A stretch of 47,897 nucleotides of DNA from an uncultured bacterium (GTDB taxonomy: Bacteria > Patescibacteriota > Minisyncoccia > Phycocordibacterales > UBA9973). Below the pieces are notes generated by a model. It ran no database searches and was not told the origin of the DNA. It saw nothing but the letters and a program-made list of their open reading frames with translations. The stretch lies in the NCBI GenBank assembly GCA_903869825.1, contig CAIQAL010000026.1:1-47897 (forward strand), written 5' to 3'. Positions 6,801 to 33,525 of the stretch are shown one piece after another. The first letter of the stretch is position 1. Each line of letters begins with the position of its first letter. The position numbers and the translations under genes were made by a program.

Positions 6801-9800
6801 TTAAATTTTTCGCTTTATTTTAGGAGGCAATATTTTCTCTTGGGGGATTTCTATTTCTTCTTTTTTCTTTCGACGACGTCGAAGATACAATATGACTCCC
6901 CCCAAAATGATAGCCATGGTACCAACTAAAGTAATAACATATAACATTATTTTTTTATCTTTATTAGCAATTTTCATCTCCGGGAAAATTGGAATTTTGG
7001 GATTTTCAATCGGCGTAGCTCTAGCTTCATTTTTATTCATTCCGATATCAGGAATTGTTGAATTAGAATTAGTCAAAATATTTGAATTCCCAGGTGAAAC
7101 TTTTTTCACATTCTTGCCCAATTTTGTATTTTTAATATTTTCTTTTCCTTTAGTCAAATTATCAGTCGCCTGTTCTACTGGTGGTATTTGAATTAGGTTT
7201 GGGTTTGGAATTTGAGGTAATCCTGGATTAATATAAACTCCTCCTCCTCCACTGCCGCCGCCACTCGGTGGAACAACATTCGGTGGTAAAGTCGCGTTCG
7301 TCGCATTCACCACACTCTGTCCAATCGCATTCACTGCACTGACTCGAAAATCATAAGTCAGATTATTGGTCAACCCAGTCACTGTCGCACTAATCGCTGT
7401 CGAGGTGCCATCAGCAAAAACTAACCAATTGGAATCTGTCGCCAATTTGTATTCAATCACATAATCGGTAATCGGACTGCCCCCATCATTGGTCGGAGCA
7501 ATCCAAGAGAGAGCAACTTGTTCATCTCCCGGCACTGCTGAAACTCCCGTCGGGGCATCAGGAACGGTAACCGGAGTCACTTCATTGGAAGGTGCAGAAG
7601 AAATACTGGTTCCGATAATATTGGTTGCTTGCACGGTAAAATTATAAGTAATGCCATTTGTTAAACCAAGAACGACGATCGGAGAAGCACTGCCAGTACC
7701 GATAATTCCTCCCGGATTGGAAGTGACAACATAACCTGTGATGGGACTGCCCCCATTAAAGGCTGGTACCGTAAAAGAAACACTGGCTTGCGTATTGCTT
7801 GCTGTAGCTGTGCCAATAGTCGGAGGATCTGGAAAGGTTGCCACCGCAGTAAATGATTGAAAAGCGCTGGATGATTCTGAACCATATAAAACTTTAATAT
7901 GGAAAAAATAGTTTCCAGGAATTAATACATCTGAATTTATCGTTTCATAATAATCATGCCCTGGTTGAATAAGCGTTGCACCTGATCCACTAGAGACATC
8001 ATCTCCCCCACCACACAGATTTAATTCTCCATCCGTAACACAGTATGAATAATGATATTCGTATTGGCTGGAACCTTCATTTTTTATATGTATTTGCGTC
8101 CCAATACTTGCAACCGTTAAATCAGGGAAACCTTCAATCGACACATGAGCTGGCTCACCTGGAGTAGCAGTAGTGGTTGCACTTGGAATACTTTGACCAA
8201 TAATATTTACCGCTCGCACTCTAAAATCATACGAAGCGCCATTGGACAAACCCGTCACTATGGCAGTCGTATTAATATTTGTGCCCTCAGCAAAAACTGC
8301 CCAAGTGCCGCCAACGGTTAATTGATATTCAATAATATAATCCATGACAGCAGAACCCCCGGTCTCAATCGGAGCGGACCAAGACAAACCGACACTACTT
8401 CCCAAAACAGTGGAAGCAAGATTGATTGGCGGACCTGGTTCGGTAGATAGCTTGACTGAATTTGAAGGTGATGATGCTGGCCCCGTTCCTACTGCATTCG
8501 TGGCCGTCACTGTAAATGTATAAGTATTGCCATTGGTCAAACCCGTCACCACGATTGGCGAAGCATTGCCCGTGGCAAAATGACCATCATTTGAAGTAAC
8601 AACGTAGCTAGTAATCGGAGTTCCTCCGTCAAAAGCAGGCGCAGAAAAAGAAACTGTTGCTTGTTTATTTCCTTCCACCGCCGAGACTGTCGTCGGCGCA
8701 TTTGGCACTGTCACCGGAGTAACCGCAACAGAAGGATCCGACGGAGCGCTGTCTCCTACTGCGTTGGTAGCAACCACTCGAAAAGTATAAGCTGTGCCAT
8801 TGGCCAAACCCGTCACCACAATCGGAGAAGCATTCCCCGTCGCCGTGTGATTATCTGGACTGGAAGTGACTGTATAACCATTGATAGTACTTCCGCCATT
8901 AAATCCTGGAGGAGTAAAAACAACTGAGACTTGCGCATTACTTGGAGTGGCAATACCGATCGTCGGTGCATCCGGCACCGTTACCGGCATAGCATTCGTT
9001 TCCACACTTGGACTCCCTGGACCGACATCGTTTACTGTTCGAATTCTAAAATCATAGGATGAACCATTTAGAAGTCCAATCACCGTCGCTGATGGCAGAG
9101 GAGAAATAGGATGAGCAGAAATTAACCAATCCAAACTACTAGAAAGTTTGTATTCAACAACATAGTCGGTAATTGGTGAACCGCCATTCCAGAGAGGGGG
9201 CGTCCAAGATAAATCAACTTTCGCATTTCCAGCGAGAGCAATTGGTAAAATCGGCGCATCGGGAATAGTGGCTGGTGTCACTGAGTTAGATGAATCGGAA
9301 TCAGGACCAGTACCAGCAGCATTAGTTGCTTTAACCGTAAAAGTATACGCAGTGCCATTGGTAAGTCCACTCACCACAATCGGAGAAGTGCCACCTATCC
9401 CTGTATGATTATCCGGGTTGGAAGTGACAGTGTAATTGGTAATGGTAGAACCACCATTGGAAATTGGAGGAATAAAAGCAACCGAAGCTTGCAAATTACC
9501 TCGCAGGGCTGTGCCAATAATCGGTGCGCCAGGAATGGTGATCGGAATAGCCGTCGCGGGAATACTTGGATCACTTGACCCTGCAATATTTACCGCTTTG
9601 ATTCTGAAATCATAAGACAAACCATTGGTGAGTCCAGTCACAATCGCTGAAGGCACAACAGAAGCATCATGGTCAAAAGTGGACCAATTCACGAGTTCAC
9701 TTGAAAGTTTAAATTGAACTACATAATCCGTAATCGGTGAACCGCCATCAAAAGCCGGTGCAGTCCAAGCTAAAGAAATTCGAGCATCACCGACCGTTGT

Positions 9801-12800
9801 CAAAACGGTCGTCGGCACATTTGGAACCGTTCTCGGTTTTACTGGAGTTGAAGTTTCCGAGGCCAAACTATTGCCCACGATATTCGTGGCAAATACAGTG
9901 AAAGTATATTCCGTGCCATTCGTCAATCCGCCAACTATAACCGGCGAAGCACTTCCGGAATTACTAAAACTTCCAGGTGTAGAAGTTGCCGTGTAACTCG
10001 TAATCGGACTGCCACCATTAGAAACTGAAGCTATGAAAGCCACCGAGACTTGCGCATTGCCAGGTATTGGTGTTCCGATAATAGGCGCACTCGGAACAGT
10101 CATCGGCGTTGCAATTGCCGTCCCGCTTGCCGGCCCTTGTCCGACTCCGTTCACAGCCGAAACTCGAAAATCATAAGACAAACCATTTGTCAGTCCCGTC
10201 ACCGTCGCCGTCGTAGAAGAAGAAGCAGAATGAGCAAAATTTGCCCAAGAGCCACCTGTAGTTAATTGAAATCCAATAGTATAATCCGTAATCGCGTTTC
10301 CACCGTCCCCCGGTGCCGTCCAAGTCAAAACCACTTGCGTGTCACCATGGGTTGCAATTAAATTAGTCGGCGCATCAGGAAGATTAGCAAACATCCAACC
10401 ATTATTATTTCCTCCATTAGTAGAATTACTAGCAAAAAAACTTGCTCCCCCTGAAGCCGTGGAATAAGTGAGAGAGTTGTAATTTACATTTACTGTCCCA
10501 CTTGACTTTGAAAGTGTCCAAGGGTTTGTACCAGAAACAACACTCCAATTTATTAAATTACCATTTGTGCCATTAGCGACTAGACTTGCCGAAGACCCAA
10601 GAGTAATTGTTTTACCTCCTGTCACTCTAATTATGTTTGGAGCAGCTATTGTAAATGTTCCATTAATTATTACGTTTCCGATAAATGCAATAGTAGAAGT
10701 GCTTGAAGCTTTACCTGAAATATTAAGATTCAAAATAGTATTACCACCAAAATTTAAACTTCTAGTTAAAGTAGTGGTATCTGTAATAAGAACAATCGTT
10801 GAACTAGCTCCACTGATAGTTGTAGAGGCAGTAGAAAAGTCAACAGAAGTTATTGTTCCATTTGCTGCAAGAGTTTGAGTTCCATTTCCCAAAATTATTC
10901 CTTTTGTTTCTGTCCCTAATAAATTTAAGTAACCAAAAGTATTGCTTGTATTATTCAAATCAAGTGTTCCATTATAAATTCTTAAACCACCATAACCGGA
11001 ATTAAATATTGTATTTCTTTGCCATGTATAAGTAGCATTATAAGAAAAAAATAAAGGACTAAATGCAATAGCAGCTGATGGATTTCCAAAATCAACAGTA
11101 TAAGAATTACCATCTCTTCCTCTAAAATAAATTCCATAAGTACTTCCAACATTCCATTGAACTGCATTTGGCATTGTCAAACTTCCAAAAATTTCAGCAA
11201 AAAAACTTGGTCTATCAAATGTAAAACTAGAAGCTTTAATACCAGAAAAATCTATATTTTTACCCAAACGTACTTGATCGTCAGTTATAGTTGTAGAATT
11301 AACGACAGAATCGCTAACAAAAAAAACATTATCTTGTGCTAATGGAGAATCTACTCCAGAAAGAGAGGCCCCACTAGTAGAATCTATATGCCAAGGATTT
11401 GTTCCAGTATAAGCGGACCAATATTTTGTACTACTAGTAGTAGTTTTCCAATATAAATTCCTTGAAGGACTAAAAGTAATATTACTTCCAGCTGCATTTC
11501 CAGCATCTCCTGAACCTCCTGCAATTCCGGATAAATCAATTAGTGAAGCAAACCCAATATCCATAAAATCTACTCTTTGCATTGAAGTTGTGGCCCCAGA
11601 ATTTAAAGTAATTGTTCTCCGAGTACCTAGTGTATTTGATTGAATTAATAGTCTATACCTATTGTCAGCACCACCTTTTAAAGTTAGAGTTCCGGTGCTA
11701 TCAATAGTTTGATTGGCTCCTAAACTTAAAATCATTGTCTGCAAAGTTTTTGATGAACCATCAAAAGAGAGGTTATGAAAAGTATTTGTACCTAATATTG
11801 TGTGTGAATTAGTTGCTGTTAATCCAGTAAAATTAATTGTCCCATTAAAAATGTGGTTTCCTCCATCAAAGGTATTATAGGAGGTGTTTAAACTTAAATT
11901 TATTGTTGATCCCGTTGTAATTAAAGTCATATTGGGACTGAAACCAACTGAAGGTGTCCTATTTCCTCCCGAAAAACTTATCGTTGAATTTGTCATGTTA
12001 AAAGTTCCACCAGAAACAGTCGTGTAGTCAAAACTTTGTCCACTAACATTAACTGTTTTCCCATTAGTTGAAACTGTTCCTCCTGTCATTGTCGCCCTCT
12101 CACCAAATCTCCAATATTGGTTAAGAGTTAAATTGTCTTGTAAGGTGATATCACCTCCTGTTAAATTAAAGACAAAGTAACTTGGTGTTTGCCCAGCAGT
12201 CGTAATTGTTCTCCCTATCGAATTTCCACTAAAATTTACAACCAAACCAACAGCTTGAGTAAAAGACATTGTTGATGATAAGATCATACTTCCATAGATA
12301 TAGAATGGAGTAGCAACTGCAACTCCATATAAAGAACCAGTAAACCCAGTACAGTCCAAATTATTCGCCGTTGAATTTGTTCCGTCTACTGTCACTGCCA
12401 CCGCACCACTATTTGCATCAAGATAAGCATCTATGGCAGAGGTAGGCACTGACTGACCTCCTGTACCTCCTGAAGTCGCCGCCCAATGGGTTGTATCAGA
12501 CCAATTTCCTGCACCACCTACCCAAAATCTTGCAGTCTGAAAAGTCCAACCAGTATTATTGCCCCCATTGGTTGAAGCATGAGCAATAAAACTCGCTCCA
12601 CCTGAGGCAGTCGAATAAGTGAAAGAATTATAATTTACATTCACTGTTCCGCCTGACTTTGAAAGTGTCCAAGGGTTTGTACCAGAAACAACACTCCAAT
12701 TTATTAAATTACCATTTGTGCCATTAGCGACTAGACTTGCCGAAGACCCAAGAGTAATAGTTTTACCCCCTGTTACTCGGATTATATTAGGAGAAGAAAT

Positions 12801-14762
12801 GCTTAGAATGCCGTTAATAGTTACATTTTCATTAAATTGCCAAGTAGCAGTCGAAGTGGATTTACCTGAAAATGTCAAATTGTTTAGTGTTATTGCTCCA
12901 GCTAGAGATCTTATCCCTGTGGTAGCATCTCCCCCCAGTTCAACAGTTGAATTCTGAGCATTTAAAACCCCTGAAACATAACTAAAAACAGTATCCCCTC
13001 CTGCTGTTCTTAATGTTTTCCATGTTCCTGAACCCATGTTAACTGTCGCCCCACTAAAACTAAATCCATAACTATTACTGGTAAGATTTTTGTTATTAGC
13101 ATTAAAGGTTCCAGCATTAAAACCAATAGCATAATAAAAAGTAATATCATCTTGTAAGGTCATACTTCCACCGTAGTTATAAAAAGATATAATTCCATTT
13201 AACAATTTTCCGCCACTTGTCAGAGTATGCGTCCCTCTCCCATAAAAATTATAACTACTAGTCATAACATTACTCGTCTGAACTGCTCCAAAAGACAAAG
13301 ACCCCATTATATAAACATATGTAGGCATAAGGGTGTCATACCAAATTGGATTGTTGGTAATATTAGTCGAAGTAATATCTGTACCAAGATCTGGCTGATC
13401 TATTTTAATATTTGTTCCCGTAGCCCTGATAGAACTTGCGTTAAAAATTATATTGTCTTGCAATAGGGGGCTATCAACTCCTGTTAATTGTGTCCCTGTT
13501 CCACCGCTTCCTGTCCACCATGAATTTATATTTGGTGAACCAGTGTTGTTGTAAGCTGAGTAATAAAATGATTGATTAGCTATTGCGTTTGGTGAATACC
13601 AATAAAGAGTTCGAGGAGAGTTAAATGTTATATTATTATTTCCACCCATATCTCCACTTCCACCCATAATTCCTGATAAATCAATTGCTGATCCAAAACC
13701 AATGTCTCTGAAATCTACTCTTTGCATAGAAGTTGTAACTCCAGTACCTAAGGTGATAGTTCTTCGAGCACCAAGAGTCAGTGAAGTAACTAAAATTCGA
13801 TATCGGTTATCAGCCCCACCTTTCAACGTTAAATTTCCACCGTTTGAAATATTTAAACCAAAAACTTGGCCACCAATTCCTAAAATAAGTGAATCTCCTA
13901 CAACAGTTCCGGTCCGATTGAAATTATTAACACTCATAGAATAATCTATACCAAAAGAGCCTGAACCTGTGGCGTTTATGTTATTATAAACGGGGGATGT
14001 AAAATTATTGCCAAAAATTCTCATATTAGAACCAGTAAAATTTAAAGTGGAATTTGTAGCAGCAAAAGGCGATATTGCATTATTACAAGCATACCAATAC
14101 CCACCGCTTGCTACTAAATTTATCGTCGAATTAGAAATGTCTAATCCTCGACTATTAGTAAAACAAGTATTAAAAGCACCCCAAGTATGAGTAAAAGCAC
14201 CAGTAATTAAAGTTCCCATATTTAAAGTCACAATAGATGATGTCCTTGTTGTTATTGCATCACCAACCGTAAATGTCTGCCCTGAACCATTGAAAGTCAA
14301 AGCTCCAAGTGTATTTCCTGCAGTAATCAAAGTTCCAGTTGCAAGAATTGCAAGTTCTGCTGTGTCACCACCTGCCACAAATTTTCCAGCCGCTAATGTT
14401 ACACTTCCAGATACAGATAGTTTCATGGCATTGGTAATGGTTAAAGTCCCGGCAGAACCTGTCATATTCAAAGTCTTTGTCACGGATGTAGTAGTATTAA
14501 CTGTCACATTTCCTGAACTTGCGTTAAAAATTACATCATCAAATGCAGTCGGGGCGAGAGTGTCCGCAATGCCATTCGGAGTACTACTCCAGGTAACATC
14601 AGACGACCAATTCCCTCCAACAGATCGTGCGTATTTTGTCGTACCAGCCGCATGGCCTGCTCGGAAACAAACAAAAGTAACAAGTATTAACGTAAAAACA
14701 AAGAAAATTCTTGAAAAGATTTTCCTTTTTCTTTCCTTATTTTTGCCAAATAAAATAGGCAT
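6801..14762 (-). CDS. Giant cell-surface protein (2653 aa): signal peptide, beta-solenoid-like repeats, about ten FN3 domains, Gly-rich linker, C-terminal TM plus basic tail
   Basis: N-terminal KIFSRIFFVFTLILVTFVCFRAGHAA; repeated …TGLTNG.SYDFRV.AVN..G… FN3 units; C-terminal IMLYVITLVGTMAIILGGVILYLRRRRKKKEE. Confidence 0.9.
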   Translation of the reverse strand: MPILFGKNKERKRKIFSRIFFVFTLILVTFVCFRAGHAAGTTKYARSVGGNWSSDVTWSSTPNGIADTLAPTAFDDVIFNASSGNVTVNTTTSVTKTLNMTGSAGTLTITNAMKLSVSGSVTLAAGKFVAGGDTAELAILATGTLITAGNTLGALTFNGSGQTFTVGDAITTRTSSIVTLNMGTLITGAFTHTWGAFNTCFTNSRGLDISNSTINLVASGGYWYACNNAISPFAATNSTLNFTGSNMRIFGNNFTSPVYNNINATGSGSFGIDYSMSVNNFNRTGTVVGDSLILGIGGQVFGLNISNGGNLTLKGGADNRYRILVTSLTLGARRTITLGTGVTTSMQRVDFRDIGFGSAIDLSGIMGGSGDMGGNNNITFNSPRTLYWYSPNAIANQSFYYSAYNNTGSPNINSWWTGSGGTGTQLTGVDSPLLQDNIIFNASSIRATGTNIKIDQPDLGTDITSTNITNNPIWYDTLMPTYVYIMGSLSFGAVQTSNVMTSSYNFYGRGTHTLTSGGKLLNGIISFYNYGGSMTLQDDITFYYAIGFNAGTFNANNKNLTSNSYGFSFSGATVNMGSGTWKTLRTAGGDTVFSYVSGVLNAQNSTVELGGDATTGIRSLAGAITLNNLTFSGKSTSTATWQFNENVTINGILSISSPNIIRVTGGKTITLGSSASLVANGTNGNLINWSVVSGTNPWTLSKSGGTVNVNYNSFTYSTASGGASFIAHASTNGGNNTGWTFQTARFWVGGAGNWSDTTHWAATSGGTGGQSVPTSAIDAYLDANSGAVAVTVDGTNSTANNLDCTGFTGSLYGVAVATPFYIYGSMILSSTMSFTQAVGLVVNFSGNSIGRTITTAGQTPSYFVFNLTGGDITLQDNLTLNQYWRFGERATMTGGTVSTNGKTVNVSGQSFDYTTVSGGTFNMTNSTISFSGGNRTPSVGFSPNMTLITTGSTINLSLNTSYNTFDGGNHIFNGTINFTGLTATNSHTILGTNTFHNLSFDGSSKTLQTMILSLGANQTIDSTGTLTLKGGADNRYRLLIQSNTLGTRRTITLNSGATTSMQRVDFMDIGFASLIDLSGIAGGSGDAGNAAGSNITFSPSRNLYWKTTTSSTKYWSAYTGTNPWHIDSTSGASLSGVDSPLAQDNVFFVSDSVVNSTTITDDQVRLGKNIDFSGIKASSFTFDRPSFFAEIFGSLTMPNAVQWNVGSTYGIYFRGRDGNSYTVDFGNPSAAIAFSPLFFSYNATYTWQRNTIFNSGYGGLRIYNGTLDLNNTSNTFGYLNLLGTETKGIILGNGTQTLAANGTITSVDFSTASTTISGASSTIVLITDTTTLTRSLNFGGNTILNLNISGKASSTSTIAFIGNVIINGTFTIAAPNIIRVTGGKTITLGSSASLVANGTNGNLINWSVVSGTNPWTLSKSSGTVNVNYNSLTYSTASGGASFFASNSTNGGNNNGWMFANLPDAPTNLIATHGDTQVVLTWTAPGDGGNAITDYTIGFQLTTGGSWANFAHSASSSTTATVTGLTNGLSYDFRVSAVNGVGQGPASGTAIATPMTVPSAPIIGTPIPGNAQVSVAFIASVSNGGSPITSYTATSTPGSFSNSGSASPVIVGGLTNGTEYTFTVFATNIVGNSLASETSTPVKPRTVPNVPTTVLTTVGDARISLAWTAPAFDGGSPITDYVVQFKLSSELVNWSTFDHDASVVPSAIVTGLTNGLSYDFRIKAVNIAGSSDPSIPATAIPITIPGAPIIGTALRGNLQASVAFIPPISNGGSTITNYTVTSNPDNHTGIGGTSPIVVSGLTNGTAYTFTVKATNAAGTGPDSDSSNSVTPATIPDAPILPIALAGNAKVDLSWTPPLWNGGSPITDYVVEYKLSSSLDWLISAHPISPLPSATVIGLLNGSSYDFRIRTVNDVGPGSPSVETNAMPVTVPDAPTIGIATPSNAQVSVVFTPPGFNGGSTINGYTVTSSPDNHTATGNASPIVVTGLANGTAYTFRVVATNAVGDSAPSDPSVAVTPVTVPNAPTTVSAVEGNKQATVSFSAPAFDGGTPITSYVVTSNDGHFATGNASPIVVTGLTNGNTYTFTVTATNAVGTGPASSPSNSVKLSTEPGPPINLASTVLGSSVGLSWSAPIETGGSAVMDYIIEYQLTVGGTWAVFAEGTNINTTAIVTGLSNGASYDFRVRAVNIIGQSIPSATTTATPGEPAHVSIEGFPDLTVASIGTQIHIKNEGSSQYEYHYSYCVTDGELNLCGGGDDVSSGSGATLIQPGHDYYETINSDVLIPGNYFFHIKVLYGSESSSAFQSFTAVATFPDPPTIGTATASNTQASVSFTVPAFNGGSPITGYVVTSNPGGIIGTGSASPIVVLGLTNGITYNFTVQATNIIGTSISSAPSNEVTPVTVPDAPTGVSAVPGDEQVALSWIAPTNDGGSPITDYVIEYKLATDSNWLVFADGTSTAISATVTGLTNNLTYDFRVSAVNAIGQSVVNATNATLPPNVVPPSGGGSGGGGVYINPGLPQIPNPNLIQIPPVEQATDNLTKGKENIKNTKLGKNVKKVSPGNSNILTNSNSTIPDIGMNKNEARATPIENPKIPIFPEMKIANKDKKIMLYVITLVGTMAIILGGVILYLRRRRKKKEEIEIPQEKILPPKIKRKI
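10503..10607. repeat. 105-bp perfect internal repeat copy A
   Basis: Identical to 12654..12758 (TGACTTTGAAAGTGTCC…CAAGAGTAAT). Confidence 0.88.
12654..12758. repeat. 105-bp perfect internal repeat copy B
   Basis: Identical to 10503..10607, offset 2151 bp. Confidence 0.88.
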
Positions 14763-26564: not shown

Positions 26565-28268
26565 CTAATAAACCTCTTGTTGGTAACATGAGACACAAAA
26601 AATTATTTCCTTTCTGTCAGGACCAAAGGCAGTGTTTATCTCTTTCTGACACTTAGGACAATTCCTTTTCCATAGCTGCATTGGGTTAAGCCGTGAAAAA
26701 TGAGAAATTGATCGACACTTAGGACAATTATGAGGAATAGGTATATTCATTTTCTTTAATAAAGAAAATTCCAAAACACCAATTTTGTATCCCCGTTTGC
26801 AATTCTCACATTCTAAAACTTCATCTATAACTGTTTCCGGAGTATCAAAAATTTTATCAGGTAAATCTTTTGATAAAATAGTGGTCTCATATTCCGCTTG
26901 TTCTCCGTCATACCAACTATAACCTTCCTTTAGTGCTTCCTCTTTTGTTTTAGGAAAGAATCTCATAGAATCTGTTTCATTGTACCCAAACATGCTGATA
27001 TTATAAGGAAAAAATTCTCCATAACTCCAGATACGCCCTTCTTTGTCTATAAAAGGATTTTTTTTCATATCTTCAATTATTTGTGATTTTAGTTTTTCAT
27101 ATTCTTCTTTACCGTATTCCTTGTTTAGGATAGAATATTTTTTTCTTTTCAAACTTACACAACCAAAACAATCTTTTGCTGAAGTCGCCCACATACAATA
27201 TTCTGTATTATAAGTATCGGGATAACCACTAAAAGAAAATTTTATATTACTTGCTTTTTCTCCGGTTGAATGTGCTTCATAAATCAATTCCACATTTGCT
27301 CCCCAACCGGAATAATCATAACAATCTTTTGTTGTTGGCACGGTTACAAATTGACAGTACCGAGAGTTTTCAACATTAGTGCATAAATACAAATCTTTAG
27401 AATTTTTTGACTCAAATACATATTCACCCGTGATGTTTAAGTTCAAGGAATTCCCAGTATATTCTCGGTAGGGTTTGTTAAACCAAAAAGTTTTTGCTTT
27501 CCCCTTTAAACTCTGGATACCTTGCCACGACTCAAGCCCAAGTTCTTTTGCTTTTATTGAATATTCTTCCTTAGAATACTTAACATTAAAAATACTGTTG
27601 GACGCTCCCCGAAGATTTACACAACCAATGCAATTTGCACAATTGTAACAATTGCGAGAAAACCATATATTTGTGCAGGCATCGCATTCTTCAGAAAAAA
27701 ATGTACCGTAGCATTTATTTATTCCAATAGATTCATAGCAAAGTTCCGATTCCCTGGCGCGCATGCAATCTGAAGAATCTTTAAATTTAAAAAGAATGGA
27801 AGAGTGAGCTATGTTTTCACAGTAGTCAGCCCAAAAAGTAAGATAACAATTTCGGAGCCAAGTTGCTCCGTTACAATATTCCGAATTTATCATACTTGGA
27901 CCAAGGGTTTCAGTGGCCACCCAAGGAACATTCCGTGAAAGTTCATAAAGTTGATCAAAAAATGTGCGTTTGGGATTGTAATCCATAGCATATTCAGTTC
28001 CATCCCAATCATCAGCCCACCAACACTTTGAACAAAGTACAGAAACAGGATTATCTTTGTTATACATTGATAAAATCTTTCTGTTGCATTTATTGCAATT
28101 GCGCCAATAAACTGTCCAAACATTTTTGGAAGCATTTCTCCTGATTATCCTACATTCCGGACACCAGGTCGGCGGAGGAACCTTTATTTTTTGGTAAAAG
28201 CCAAAATCTTCCGGTTCGATAATAAAATCAGATTTGCAGTTTTGACATACGACATTTTTATTTTCCAT
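26565..28268 (-). CDS. Cys-rich zinc-ribbon protein of unknown function (paralog 1)
   Basis: Repeated CxxC motifs at both ends and a central Cys/Asn-rich repetitive region; ends CYQQEVY. Confidence 0.85.
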   Translation of the reverse strand: MENKNVVCQNCKSDFIIEPEDFGFYQKIKVPPPTWCPECRIIRRNASKNVWTVYWRNCNKCNRKILSMYNKDNPVSVLCSKCWWADDWDGTEYAMDYNPKRTFFDQLYELSRNVPWVATETLGPSMINSEYCNGATWLRNCYLTFWADYCENIAHSSILFKFKDSSDCMRARESELCYESIGINKCYGTFFSEECDACTNIWFSRNCYNCANCIGCVNLRGASNSIFNVKYSKEEYSIKAKELGLESWQGIQSLKGKAKTFWFNKPYREYTGNSLNLNITGEYVFESKNSKDLYLCTNVENSRYCQFVTVPTTKDCYDYSGWGANVELIYEAHSTGEKASNIKFSFSGYPDTYNTEYCMWATSAKDCFGCVSLKRKKYSILNKEYGKEEYEKLKSQIIEDMKKNPFIDKEGRIWSYGEFFPYNISMFGYNETDSMRFFPKTKEEALKEGYSWYDGEQAEYETTILSKDLPDKIFDTPETVIDEVLECENCKRGYKIGVLEFSLLKKMNIPIPHNCPKCRSISHFSRLNPMQLWKRNCPKCQKEINTAFGPDRKEIIFCVSCYQQEVY

Positions 28269-31809: not shown

Positions 31810-33525
31810 TCAGTAAACTTCCTGCTGATAACAACGTTCACAATAAATAATCTCAGATCGTTCTGGTGAATAGGAAGTTTCAAATTCATTAGTACATCCT
31901 TTTTTCATACATTTTCTGTGCCAGAGTTTTAGAGGATTCCTAAATTTAAGTCTTTGATAATGTCGACAATTCGGGCAATACCTGGGAAGTGGTAAACTTT
32001 TTTGTTTATAGAATTGTAGTTCATTGGGGACAATTTTATAAGCTGTTGTACACTGATAAACCTGAGCACCTTCATTTGGACAAGCAATTATTTCATTCAA
32101 AACATTCTCCGTAACATTATTAATATCATCTGGTAAATCACTACTCTTGGTAGTTATGTTGTATTCTCTTTTTTCTCTTTTTTTCCAATTGTAACCTTTT
32201 GAATTTGCTTCTCCTTCGGAGATTGAGAAAAAATCATTTGCATTTGTTTCATTGTATCCAAATGGCGACAGCTCAAATGGAAAAAATTCTCCATATTTAT
32301 ATAATCTTCCATTTTTATCAACATAAGGCATGTCATTCATGTGTTTTTTTATTTTACTAACCATCTCAAAATATTTTTCTTTCGAATATCTTTTATTTAA
32401 AATACAATACTCAGCATTATGTATGCCAAAACATCCAAAACAATTCGAACAATTTCTCATTATCCCCGAATATTCACAATCAGTACAAGTAAGAGTGATA
32501 TAGCAAAAGAAATTTTTATATGAACTTATACTGGCTGCCAAAGTTTCATAAGTCAGTTCAGAATTTCTCCCACCTCCAGATACATCATAGGAATCTTTTT
32601 CTCCTTGGGTAGCACGAAAACTATAAGCAATATCTTCCGAATCCCAGACATCAAAAGAAGCTTTAATGTTCTTTGAATTTTTTATATTATCCCCTTCTGC
32701 TAATTTTGAATTTATTATTAAAGAATATCTGTGGATAGTATCATTTTTAATCAATTTATTATAATCGCTTAATGCCTGAGACATCCCTGAATGGGAATTT
32801 AAGTGAAGATTTGATACCTGTTTTTTGTATTCTTCTTCGGAAAGTTTTTGATTTTTAAATACATATTTTTGATTCCTTAAATTGGATGAAAGACAGCAAT
32901 TCTGACAATTACTGCAATCAAATAAAAAATATGAATCAATACAATCAGAAGACCTTACTGAATAATGAGTATTGTAATTTAAATCGCTATCAACATTATT
33001 TGAGCACCCATCGATTTTAAAGGAAGAATATGAATCTATGCTGTTTTTTGACTTTTCGATTGTTTCCGAATACATTATGTCTTCACAATTTATTGCCGAA
33101 TACGCCAAGTAAACATTCCGATTATCCACTGAGTAATTTGAAAAATCAGAGTTAACAAAATTACCCGAACGGTATTGAAAAACCCTTGGGGCATCATCCA
33201 GTAGTTCCTTAAGCTGAACAAAAAATGGTTTAGAAAAATCATAATCCTTTCCTGAACGATATTGATCCCAGTTATCTCCATTCCAACAATCATTGCAATA
33301 AACATCAGGACCATCGGCATACATACTAATCAAAAGTTTTTTACACAAACCACATTCTCTTTTATAGAGTGACCTGACGTTTCTCCAACACAACCGACGA
33401 ATACTTCGGCATTCCGGACAAAAGGTCGGTGGTGGCACTTTTATTTTTTCGTAAAATTTAAAATCATCCGATCCGATATTAAAATTATTTTTACAATTTT
33501 GACAAACCCTGGTTTCTGGATTCAT
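31810..33525 (-). CDS. Cys-rich zinc-ribbon protein of unknown function (paralog 2)
   Basis: Same architecture as 26565..28268; ends CYQQEVY. Confidence 0.85.
   Translation of the reverse strand: MNPETRVCQNCKNNFNIGSDDFKFYEKIKVPPPTFCPECRSIRRLCWRNVRSLYKRECGLCKKLLISMYADGPDVYCNDCWNGDNWDQYRSGKDYDFSKPFFVQLKELLDDAPRVFQYRSGNFVNSDFSNYSVDNRNVYLAYSAINCEDIMYSETIEKSKNSIDSYSSFKIDGCSNNVDSDLNYNTHYSVRSSDCIDSYFLFDCSNCQNCCLSSNLRNQKYVFKNQKLSEEEYKKQVSNLHLNSHSGMSQALSDYNKLIKNDTIHRYSLIINSKLAEGDNIKNSKNIKASFDVWDSEDIAYSFRATQGEKDSYDVSGGGRNSELTYETLAASISSYKNFFCYITLTCTDCEYSGIMRNCSNCFGCFGIHNAEYCILNKRYSKEKYFEMVSKIKKHMNDMPYVDKNGRLYKYGEFFPFELSPFGYNETNANDFFSISEGEANSKGYNWKKREKREYNITTKSSDLPDDINNVTENVLNEIIACPNEGAQVYQCTTAYKIVPNELQFYKQKSLPLPRYCPNCRHYQRLKFRNPLKLWHRKCMKKGCTNEFETSYSPERSEIIYCERCYQQEVY

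What the first reader, a model, noticed from the sequence alone, without database searches (positions are those of the whole stretch)
26565..28268. N- and C-terminal zinc modules of the Cys-rich proteins look like internal duplicates
Within paralog 1, FGFYQKIKVPPPTWCPECRIIRRNASKNVWTVYWRNCNKC parallels FSLLKKMNIPIPHNCPKCRSISHFSRLNPMQLWKRNCPKC. In paralog 2, FYEKIKVPPPTFCPECRSIRRLCWRNVRSLYKREC parallels FYKQKSLPLPRYCPNCRHYQRLKFRNPLKLWHRKC. The same module caps both ends of the repetitive core, as expected for a duplicated cap/anchor domain around a solenoid.
Basis: seen in the sequence. Interest (0 to 1): 0.6.

Follow-up and report, generated by a model that had tools for sequence, protein, structure and literature searches.

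The report
Twin zinc caps on bacterial solenoid
Both ends of a large protein family in tiny Patescibacteria carry the same double zinc-finger module, also found as a separate small neighbouring gene in relatives, and the cysteine-lined middle is a doubled repeat too; the function of the whole family is unknown.

Summary
The N- and C-terminal ~85-residue modules of the Cys-rich proteins are homologous over their whole length (profile-profile 99.7%, E about 1e-26; E about 1e-16 with all Cys masked; controls with shuffled columns or unrelated zinc sites score far lower). Each is a tandem of two treble clefs, Pfam zf_Tbcl plus zf_Tbcl_2.

The core is itself a homologous pair (E about 1e-36), so the plan is cap-core-core-cap. 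AlphaFold2 models P1 well (pLDDT 91, pTM 0.91) as a beta-solenoid between two caps of the same secondary structure. In the first core 99% of cysteines fall on every third residue, the in-out-out pattern of beetle antifreeze proteins.

In related genomes cap and core are separate adjacent genes, before or after each other, or half-fused. All N-caps form one clade and all C-caps another, so both copies predate the family's radiation. Internal duplication and fusion of two sister cap genes cannot be told apart.

The window's genome has 16 copies (about 3.5% of it, three with broken frames); close relatives have 0 to 23. Function is inferred only: a cytosolic zinc-capped scaffold with a variable surface.

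The parts
26565..28268 (-). P1 gene, 567 aa, cap-core-core-cap protein; 2 bp after an LDH-like gene and 25 bp before enolase, all on the same strand
28011..28259 (-). P1 N-cap (aa 4-86): zf_Tbcl-type treble clef (C8,C11,C36,C39) plus second treble clef (C58,C61,C79,C82)
   Evidence: hmmscan zf_Tbcl 18.9 bits, 24.5 bits in genome search; hhalign to C-cap E 9e-26; N site 1 complete in 135/136, site 2 in 66/136
27534..27935 (-). P1 core repeat K1 (about aa 112-245), beta-solenoid with small inward residue every third position, ending in CxxCxxCxxC and a SKEEY motif
   Evidence: AF2 strands every 6 residues; 99.2% of Cys in one phase mod 3; homologous to K2
27054..27479 (-). P1 core repeat K2 (about aa 264-405)
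   Evidence: hhalign to K1 E 3.7e-36, 128 columns; K1 and K2 each a clade
26568..26819 (-). P1 C-cap (aa 484-567): C487,C490,C515,C518 plus C537,C540,C558,C561
   Evidence: zf_Tbcl_2 20.1 bits, below cut-off; AF2 of the C-cap alone pLDDT 93; site 2 complete in 132/136
31810..33525 (-). P2 gene, 571 aa, same architecture, 39% identical to P1
33274..33516 (-). P2 N-cap (aa 4-84)
   Evidence: zf_Tbcl 14.5 bits, below cut-off; within-P2 blastp to C-cap E 2e-12
31813..32085 (-). P2 C-cap (aa 481-571)

Best explanation
SHOWN by sequence: these are paralogs of a Paceibacteria (Parcubacteria) protein family built cap-core-core-cap. Both caps descend from one ancestral double treble-clef module (zf_Tbcl + zf_Tbcl_2) and both cores from one ancestral repeat. 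PREDICTED: the cores form a beta-solenoid whose interior is lined every third residue by Cys/Ser/Ala/Val, and each cap is a small zinc-stabilised domain. INFERRED from phylogeny and split genes: the cap was first a separate subunit encoded next to a core-core gene, and was captured at both ends (or captured once and copied) before the family radiated. INFERRED function: a cytosolic scaffold or adaptor. The zinc caps stabilise and terminate the solenoid and probably carry the conserved contacts (protein or nucleic acid), while the outward solenoid faces, which differ most among copies, bind variable partners. The family is accessory and spreads by tandem duplication.
For: N-C homology with controls. 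K1-K2 homology. N-caps one clade 98/97, C-caps one clade 99/99, generic stand-alones apart 100/99, split caps in between. N-C score 133 exceeds N-S 87 and C-S 102. Stand-alone cap genes directly beside uncapped K-K genes: L147/L156 and L185 (cap first), L160-L162 (cap last), L157 and L171 (K-K-cap plus a lone cap). Stand-alones are PF13451+PF23477 above cut-off. AF2 pLDDT 91.4, pTM 0.91. In-out-out lattice. No room for a signal peptide: first zinc ligand at residue 8, invariant in 136. K1 outward positions more variable than inward ones or caps (2.35 against 2.03 and 1.6-1.8 bits). Tandem arrays and 0-23 copies per genome within one genus.
Against: No experiment, no annotated homologue and no solved structure bears on function. 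The core lattice might be mere packing. Two caps per protein do not require a scaffold role. Cap trees rest on 82 columns; N+C as one clade is not recovered when split caps are added (not rejected, p-AU 0.25). Zinc binding itself is inferred from eight conserved cysteines. P1's own caps score below the Pfam cut-offs in hmmscan.
Confidence: 0.62

Rival explanations
1. The two caps were acquired by separate fusions of two already distinct sister cap genes onto a core-core gene, not by copying one end to the other inside one gene.
For: Cap genes occur upstream of the core in some genomes and downstream in others, and L157/L171 have one fused and one free cap that differ from each other. The fused C-terminal cap of L157/L171 groups with the N-caps (90/96) and split caps lie between N and C.
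Against: N and C profiles are closer to each other than either is to generic stand-alones, and in the first tree N+C is one side of a branch at 99/96. The data do not reject N+C as a clade when split caps are added (p-AU 0.25).
Confidence: 0.45
2. The caps are nucleic-acid binders: basic treble clefs (CPECRxxRRxxxRNExxLYKR) hold RNA or DNA and the solenoid is a spacer between two grips.
For: C-caps carry a median net charge of +4 and an Arg-rich helix after the second CxxC in both caps; treble clefs commonly bind nucleic acids (general knowledge).
Against: N-caps are near neutral (median +1) and the whole protein is slightly acidic (median -3). No significant fold match to any nucleic-acid complex (all E > 0.05).
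Confidence: 0.25
3. Thiol or metal store: the protein is about 6% Cys and the Cys-lined solenoid plus four zinc sites hold metal or buffer redox.
For: Up to 16 cap Cys plus many core Cys; a CutA-like gene lies at 7 loci (identified by eye).
Against: Most core Cys alternate with Ser, Ala or Val between family members, as expected for small buried residues and not for metal ligands. Only the last coil of K1 (207-216) and C370/C379 are near invariant. N-cap site 2 is lost in about half of the proteins.
Confidence: 0.12
4. The similarity is convergence of zinc knuckles.
For: CxxC fingers recur often.
Against: E 2e-17 with every Cys masked; full-length match; same secondary structure order; cross-matches of first finger to second finger are not significant.
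Confidence: 0.01

Closest known systems
zf_Tbcl (PF13451) and zf_Tbcl_2 (PF23477), probable treble clef domains
   Same: Each cap is these two domains in this order; stand-alone relatives in Patescibacteria hit both above cut-off; the C-cap of an own-genome paralog passes PF13451 at 29.2 bits.
   Different: Known models describe single small domains. Here the pair occurs twice, at the two ends of a solenoid, and the N-copy often lacks the second zinc site.
Beetle hyperactive antifreeze proteins (TmAFP, 1EZG; TCTxSxNCxxAx, PMC8038014)
   Different: Cytosolic, no regular Thr ranks (Thr 1-5%), Cys not invariant, no recognisable sequence relationship, zinc caps; coil length 12 is inferred, not shown.
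Hexapeptide left-handed beta-helix proteins (LpxA, LpxD, GlmU, gamma carbonic anhydrase)
   Same: Best Foldseek matches of the whole model, all beta-solenoids with short strands.
   Different: All matches are insignificant (E > 0.001, prob < 0.4, TM about 0.1); inward period 3, not the hexapeptide pattern.
LIM domains (for example CRP1, 1B8T)
   Same: The second treble clef of the caps aligns weakly with LIM (PDB E 0.0024; 7 of 78 caps match Pfam LIM).
   Different: Only about 30 residues; no LIM architecture.

Membership tests
zf_Tbcl (PF13451) | Score above the curated cut-off of 24 bits | tested here: inconclusive
   P1 N-cap 18.9 bits in hmmscan and 24.5 in the genome search; C-cap of the C1:6117-7769 paralog 29.2; stand-alones 33.6-85 bits
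zf_Tbcl (PF13451) | CxxC...CPxCR treble-clef core over the model length | tested here: met
   N site 1 complete in 135/136 and C site 1 in 122/136; hits span model 2-46 of 48; 43 of 78 caps match at E <= 0.01
zf_Tbcl_2 (PF23477) | Score above the curated cut-off of 27 bits | tested here: not met
   P1 C-cap 16.1-20.1 bits; the stand-alone cap of L147 passes with 40.3, so P1 is a divergent relative by profile comparison only
TmAFP-type antifreeze beta-helix | Inward residue every third position | tested here: met
   99.2% of K1 Cys and 78% small residues in one phase; charged 0.9% against 27-30%
TmAFP-type antifreeze beta-helix | Thr ranks (TxT) on one face | tested here: not met
   Thr 1-5% in each phase, at most 8% at any position mod 12
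TmAFP-type antifreeze beta-helix | 12-residue coil | tested here: inconclusive
   DSSP strands every 6 residues and hydropathy peak near 12, but no 12-periodicity of Cys itself
Pentapeptide-repeat proteins | Five-residue periodicity | tested here: not met
   Power at period 5 is 0.003-0.007 against 0.24-0.33 at period 3
Hexapeptide left-handed beta-helix | Significant fold match to LpxA/GlmU type structures | tested here: not met
   No match with E <= 0.001; best prob below 0.4 and TM about 0.1

The most novel reading that the evidence does not exclude
An undescribed, Paceibacteria-centred family of cytosolic zinc-capped solenoids with a Cys-lined, every-third-residue interior (a beetle-antifreeze-like coil in bacteria), in which a once separate cap subunit was captured at both ends of a doubled core, and which expands to more than 20 diversifying copies in genomes of 0.6-0.8 Mb as a repertoire of recognition scaffolds.
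Probability: 0.3. Interest if true: 0.72.

Novelty: new variant of a known kind. Interest (0 to 1): 0.5.

Why it matters
Patescibacteria have minimal genomes, yet this one spends about 3.5% of its sequence on one uncharacterised family whose copy number runs from 0 to 23 within a genus. Knowing that it is a cap-core-core-cap fusion of two smaller proteins gives it testable parts: the isolated cap, the uncapped core of the split genomes, and the full protein. The core has no Pfam, NCBIfam or PDB match, so one structure would settle a fold now known only by prediction. The set of split, half-fused and fused genes is also a rare visible series of intermediates in the making of a large symmetric protein.

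Tried and rejected
Convergent zinc knuckles: rejected by Cys-masked and column-shuffled controls. Viral origin: 1 partial hit in IMG/VR and none in 50,697 phage records. Known defence system: none in PADLOC. Secreted protein: no room for a signal peptide. Pentapeptide or hexapeptide repeat: periodicity test. Functional link to VirD4/TraD-like ATPases: they flank family genes in 19 of 80 loci and in the own genome, but the own locus reads grpE-family-family-dnaK-ATPase-family-ATPase-dnaJ (names by eye), so it may be conserved synteny of one cluster; not used as evidence. Literature searches for the family found nothing; many journals are not held. The lead from memory that GenBank calls such proteins 'caib/baif family protein' could not be tested. 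3D superposition of the caps could not be done (no coordinates).

Full report
WHAT IS THERE. P1 (window 26565-28268, minus strand, 567 aa) and P2 (31810-33525, minus, 571 aa) are 39% identical paralogs. The genome (774 kb, 38 contigs, 98.7% complete) holds 16 copies: 13 intact and 3 with a broken frame (C16:67.8-69.4 kb, C1:53.4-55.1 kb, C1:37.5-39.1 kb). At about 1.7 kb each this is roughly 3.5% of the genome.

THE OBSERVATION. Profiles of the first ~90 and last ~90 residues were compared. On 13 own-genome paralogs hhalign gives 99.6%, E 5.7e-24, 91 columns. With all Cys masked E is 8.6e-16, with Cys and Pro masked 6e-13. The reversed profile gives a score of 17.5 against 134, 200 column shuffles reach at most 23, and 200 shuffles that leave the Cys columns in place reach at most 21. 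On 136 full-length relatives E is 9e-26, masked 2e-17. Within single proteins blastp of N against C is significant in 12 of 13, the best being P1 at E 5.6e-17. LeuRS zinc sites do not match. First finger matches first finger (E 5e-20) and second matches second (E 3.5e-13); cross-pairs do not match. So each module is two different fingers in fixed order, and the pair as a whole was duplicated. In three divergent paralogs (L013, L015, L016) the similarity appears to extend upstream of the first Cys (by eye; alignment).

Core segment K1 (P1 about 96-258) and K2 (262-412) match each other with E 3.7e-36, 4e-32 when Cys are masked. N or C against K1 or K2 gives nothing. The protein is therefore cap-core-core-cap. 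In K1 (128-219), across 136 sequences, 99.2% of cysteines lie in one phase modulo 3. That phase is 35% Cys and 78% small residues with 0.9% charge, against 0.1% Cys and 27-30% charge elsewhere (permutation of columns, 0 of 20,000). This is the in-out-out pattern of beetle antifreeze proteins (PMC8038014). AlphaFold2 on the 136-sequence alignment gives pLDDT 91.4 and pTM 0.91, with strands about every 6 residues in the core. The cap elements run E4-7, E14-17, H19-28, H37-46, E54-57, E64-67, H80-83 at the N end and two short strands, H498-507, H516-525, E533-536, E543-546, H559-566 at the C end. The C-cap alone folds the same way (pLDDT 93). Foldseek finds no significant match in PDB for the whole or the cap, and none in BFVD for the whole (E > 0.001). 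Two phage 'zinc-ribbon' proteins do match the model over 41-44 residues at 0.5-0.7 A.

WHERE THE CAP COMES FROM. Many Patescibacteria have 90-140 aa stand-alone proteins that match both caps over their full length. They are PF13451 + PF23477 above cut-off, and all 26 taken into the tree keep eight Cys. Some genomes have the same parts as neighbouring genes. L147/L156 and L185 have a cap gene followed by a core-core gene. L160, L161 and L162 have a core-core gene followed by a cap gene. L157 and L171 have a core-core-cap gene followed by a lone cap gene. In a tree of 68 caps, C-caps form a clade (99/99), N-caps form a clade (98/97), generic stand-alones are apart (100/99) and split-form caps fall between; the fused cap of L157/L171 is nearest to the N-caps (90/96). 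K1 and K2 are each a clade (96/92, 98/95) with the split-form cores outside. Thus both duplications are older than the radiation of the fused family. Whether the second cap was copied within the gene or joined as a second cap gene is not resolved (p-AU 0.25 for N+C exclusive, 82 columns).

THE COPIES HAVE DIVERGED. C-cap site 2 is complete in 132 of 136, N-cap site 2 in 66 of 136 (all four ligands kept, or nearly all lost), N site 1 in 135, C site 1 in 122. The N-cap may have shifted from zinc-dependent to zinc-independent folding of its second finger.

DISTRIBUTION. The 80 best are from Nomura-, Staskawicz-, Lipton-, Jorgensen-, Sung-, Moran-, Harrison- and Magasanikbacteria or unnamed Patescibacteria, plus one 'Burkholderiales' bin that is probably mis-binned. 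Many are in head-to-tail arrays of up to 5-6 copies per 9.7 kb, some overlapping by a few bases. Within the window's own genus complete genomes carry 0, 1, 5, 8, 9, 13, 13, 18, 19 and 23 matches. The family is accessory and turns over fast.

FUNCTION (INFERRED). The first zinc ligand is residue 8, so there is no signal peptide and the protein is most likely cytosolic. Caps and the core ends (CxxCxxCxxC and the SKEEY motif) are the most conserved; K1 outward positions and K2 vary most. The simplest reading is a rigid zinc-capped scaffold with a variable surface. Rivals are nucleic-acid binding by the caps and a thiol or metal store; each is listed with what would refute it. Neighbours do not decide: P1 lies between LDH-like and enolase genes and P2 between an ABC transporter and lepA in this window (gene names by eye, except Pfam for ABC and MurJ). 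Elsewhere VirD4-like ATPases, DnaJ, GrpE, L19 and RluD-like genes recur, which may be synteny alone.

VERDICT. Observation confirmed; interpretation partly supported and extended. Known domain pair, new arrangement, core without any library model.

Noticed in passing
G000 C1:66008-71388 (L186 9425-15087): A VirD4/TraD-like ATPase with a C-terminal zf_Tbcl_2-like finger, a family gene and a second such ATPase stand in a row between dnaK and dnaJ; similar ATPases flank family genes at 19 of 80 foreign loci.
   Followed up: partly
L145 455-1165, L146 591-1280: Proteins of about 235 aa with a single core repeat, a different N-terminal domain and no zinc cap, in two other Patescibacteria.
   Followed up: partly
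G000 C16:67791-69430, C1:53408-55113, C1:37515-39147: Three family copies with broken frames; pseudogenes or assembly errors.
   Followed up: no
L026, L046, L060, L063, L077, L094, L099: A CutA-like gene (identified by eye) near family genes at seven loci.
   Followed up: no
L025 (JAMPXW010000001.1): A 277-kb contig titled Burkholderiales that carries family genes beside RluD- and L19-like genes as in Nomurabacteria; probably a mis-binned Patescibacteria contig.
   Followed up: no
window 6801-14762, minus: A 2653-aa open reading frame, unusually long for a 0.77-Mb genome; not examined.
   Followed up: no
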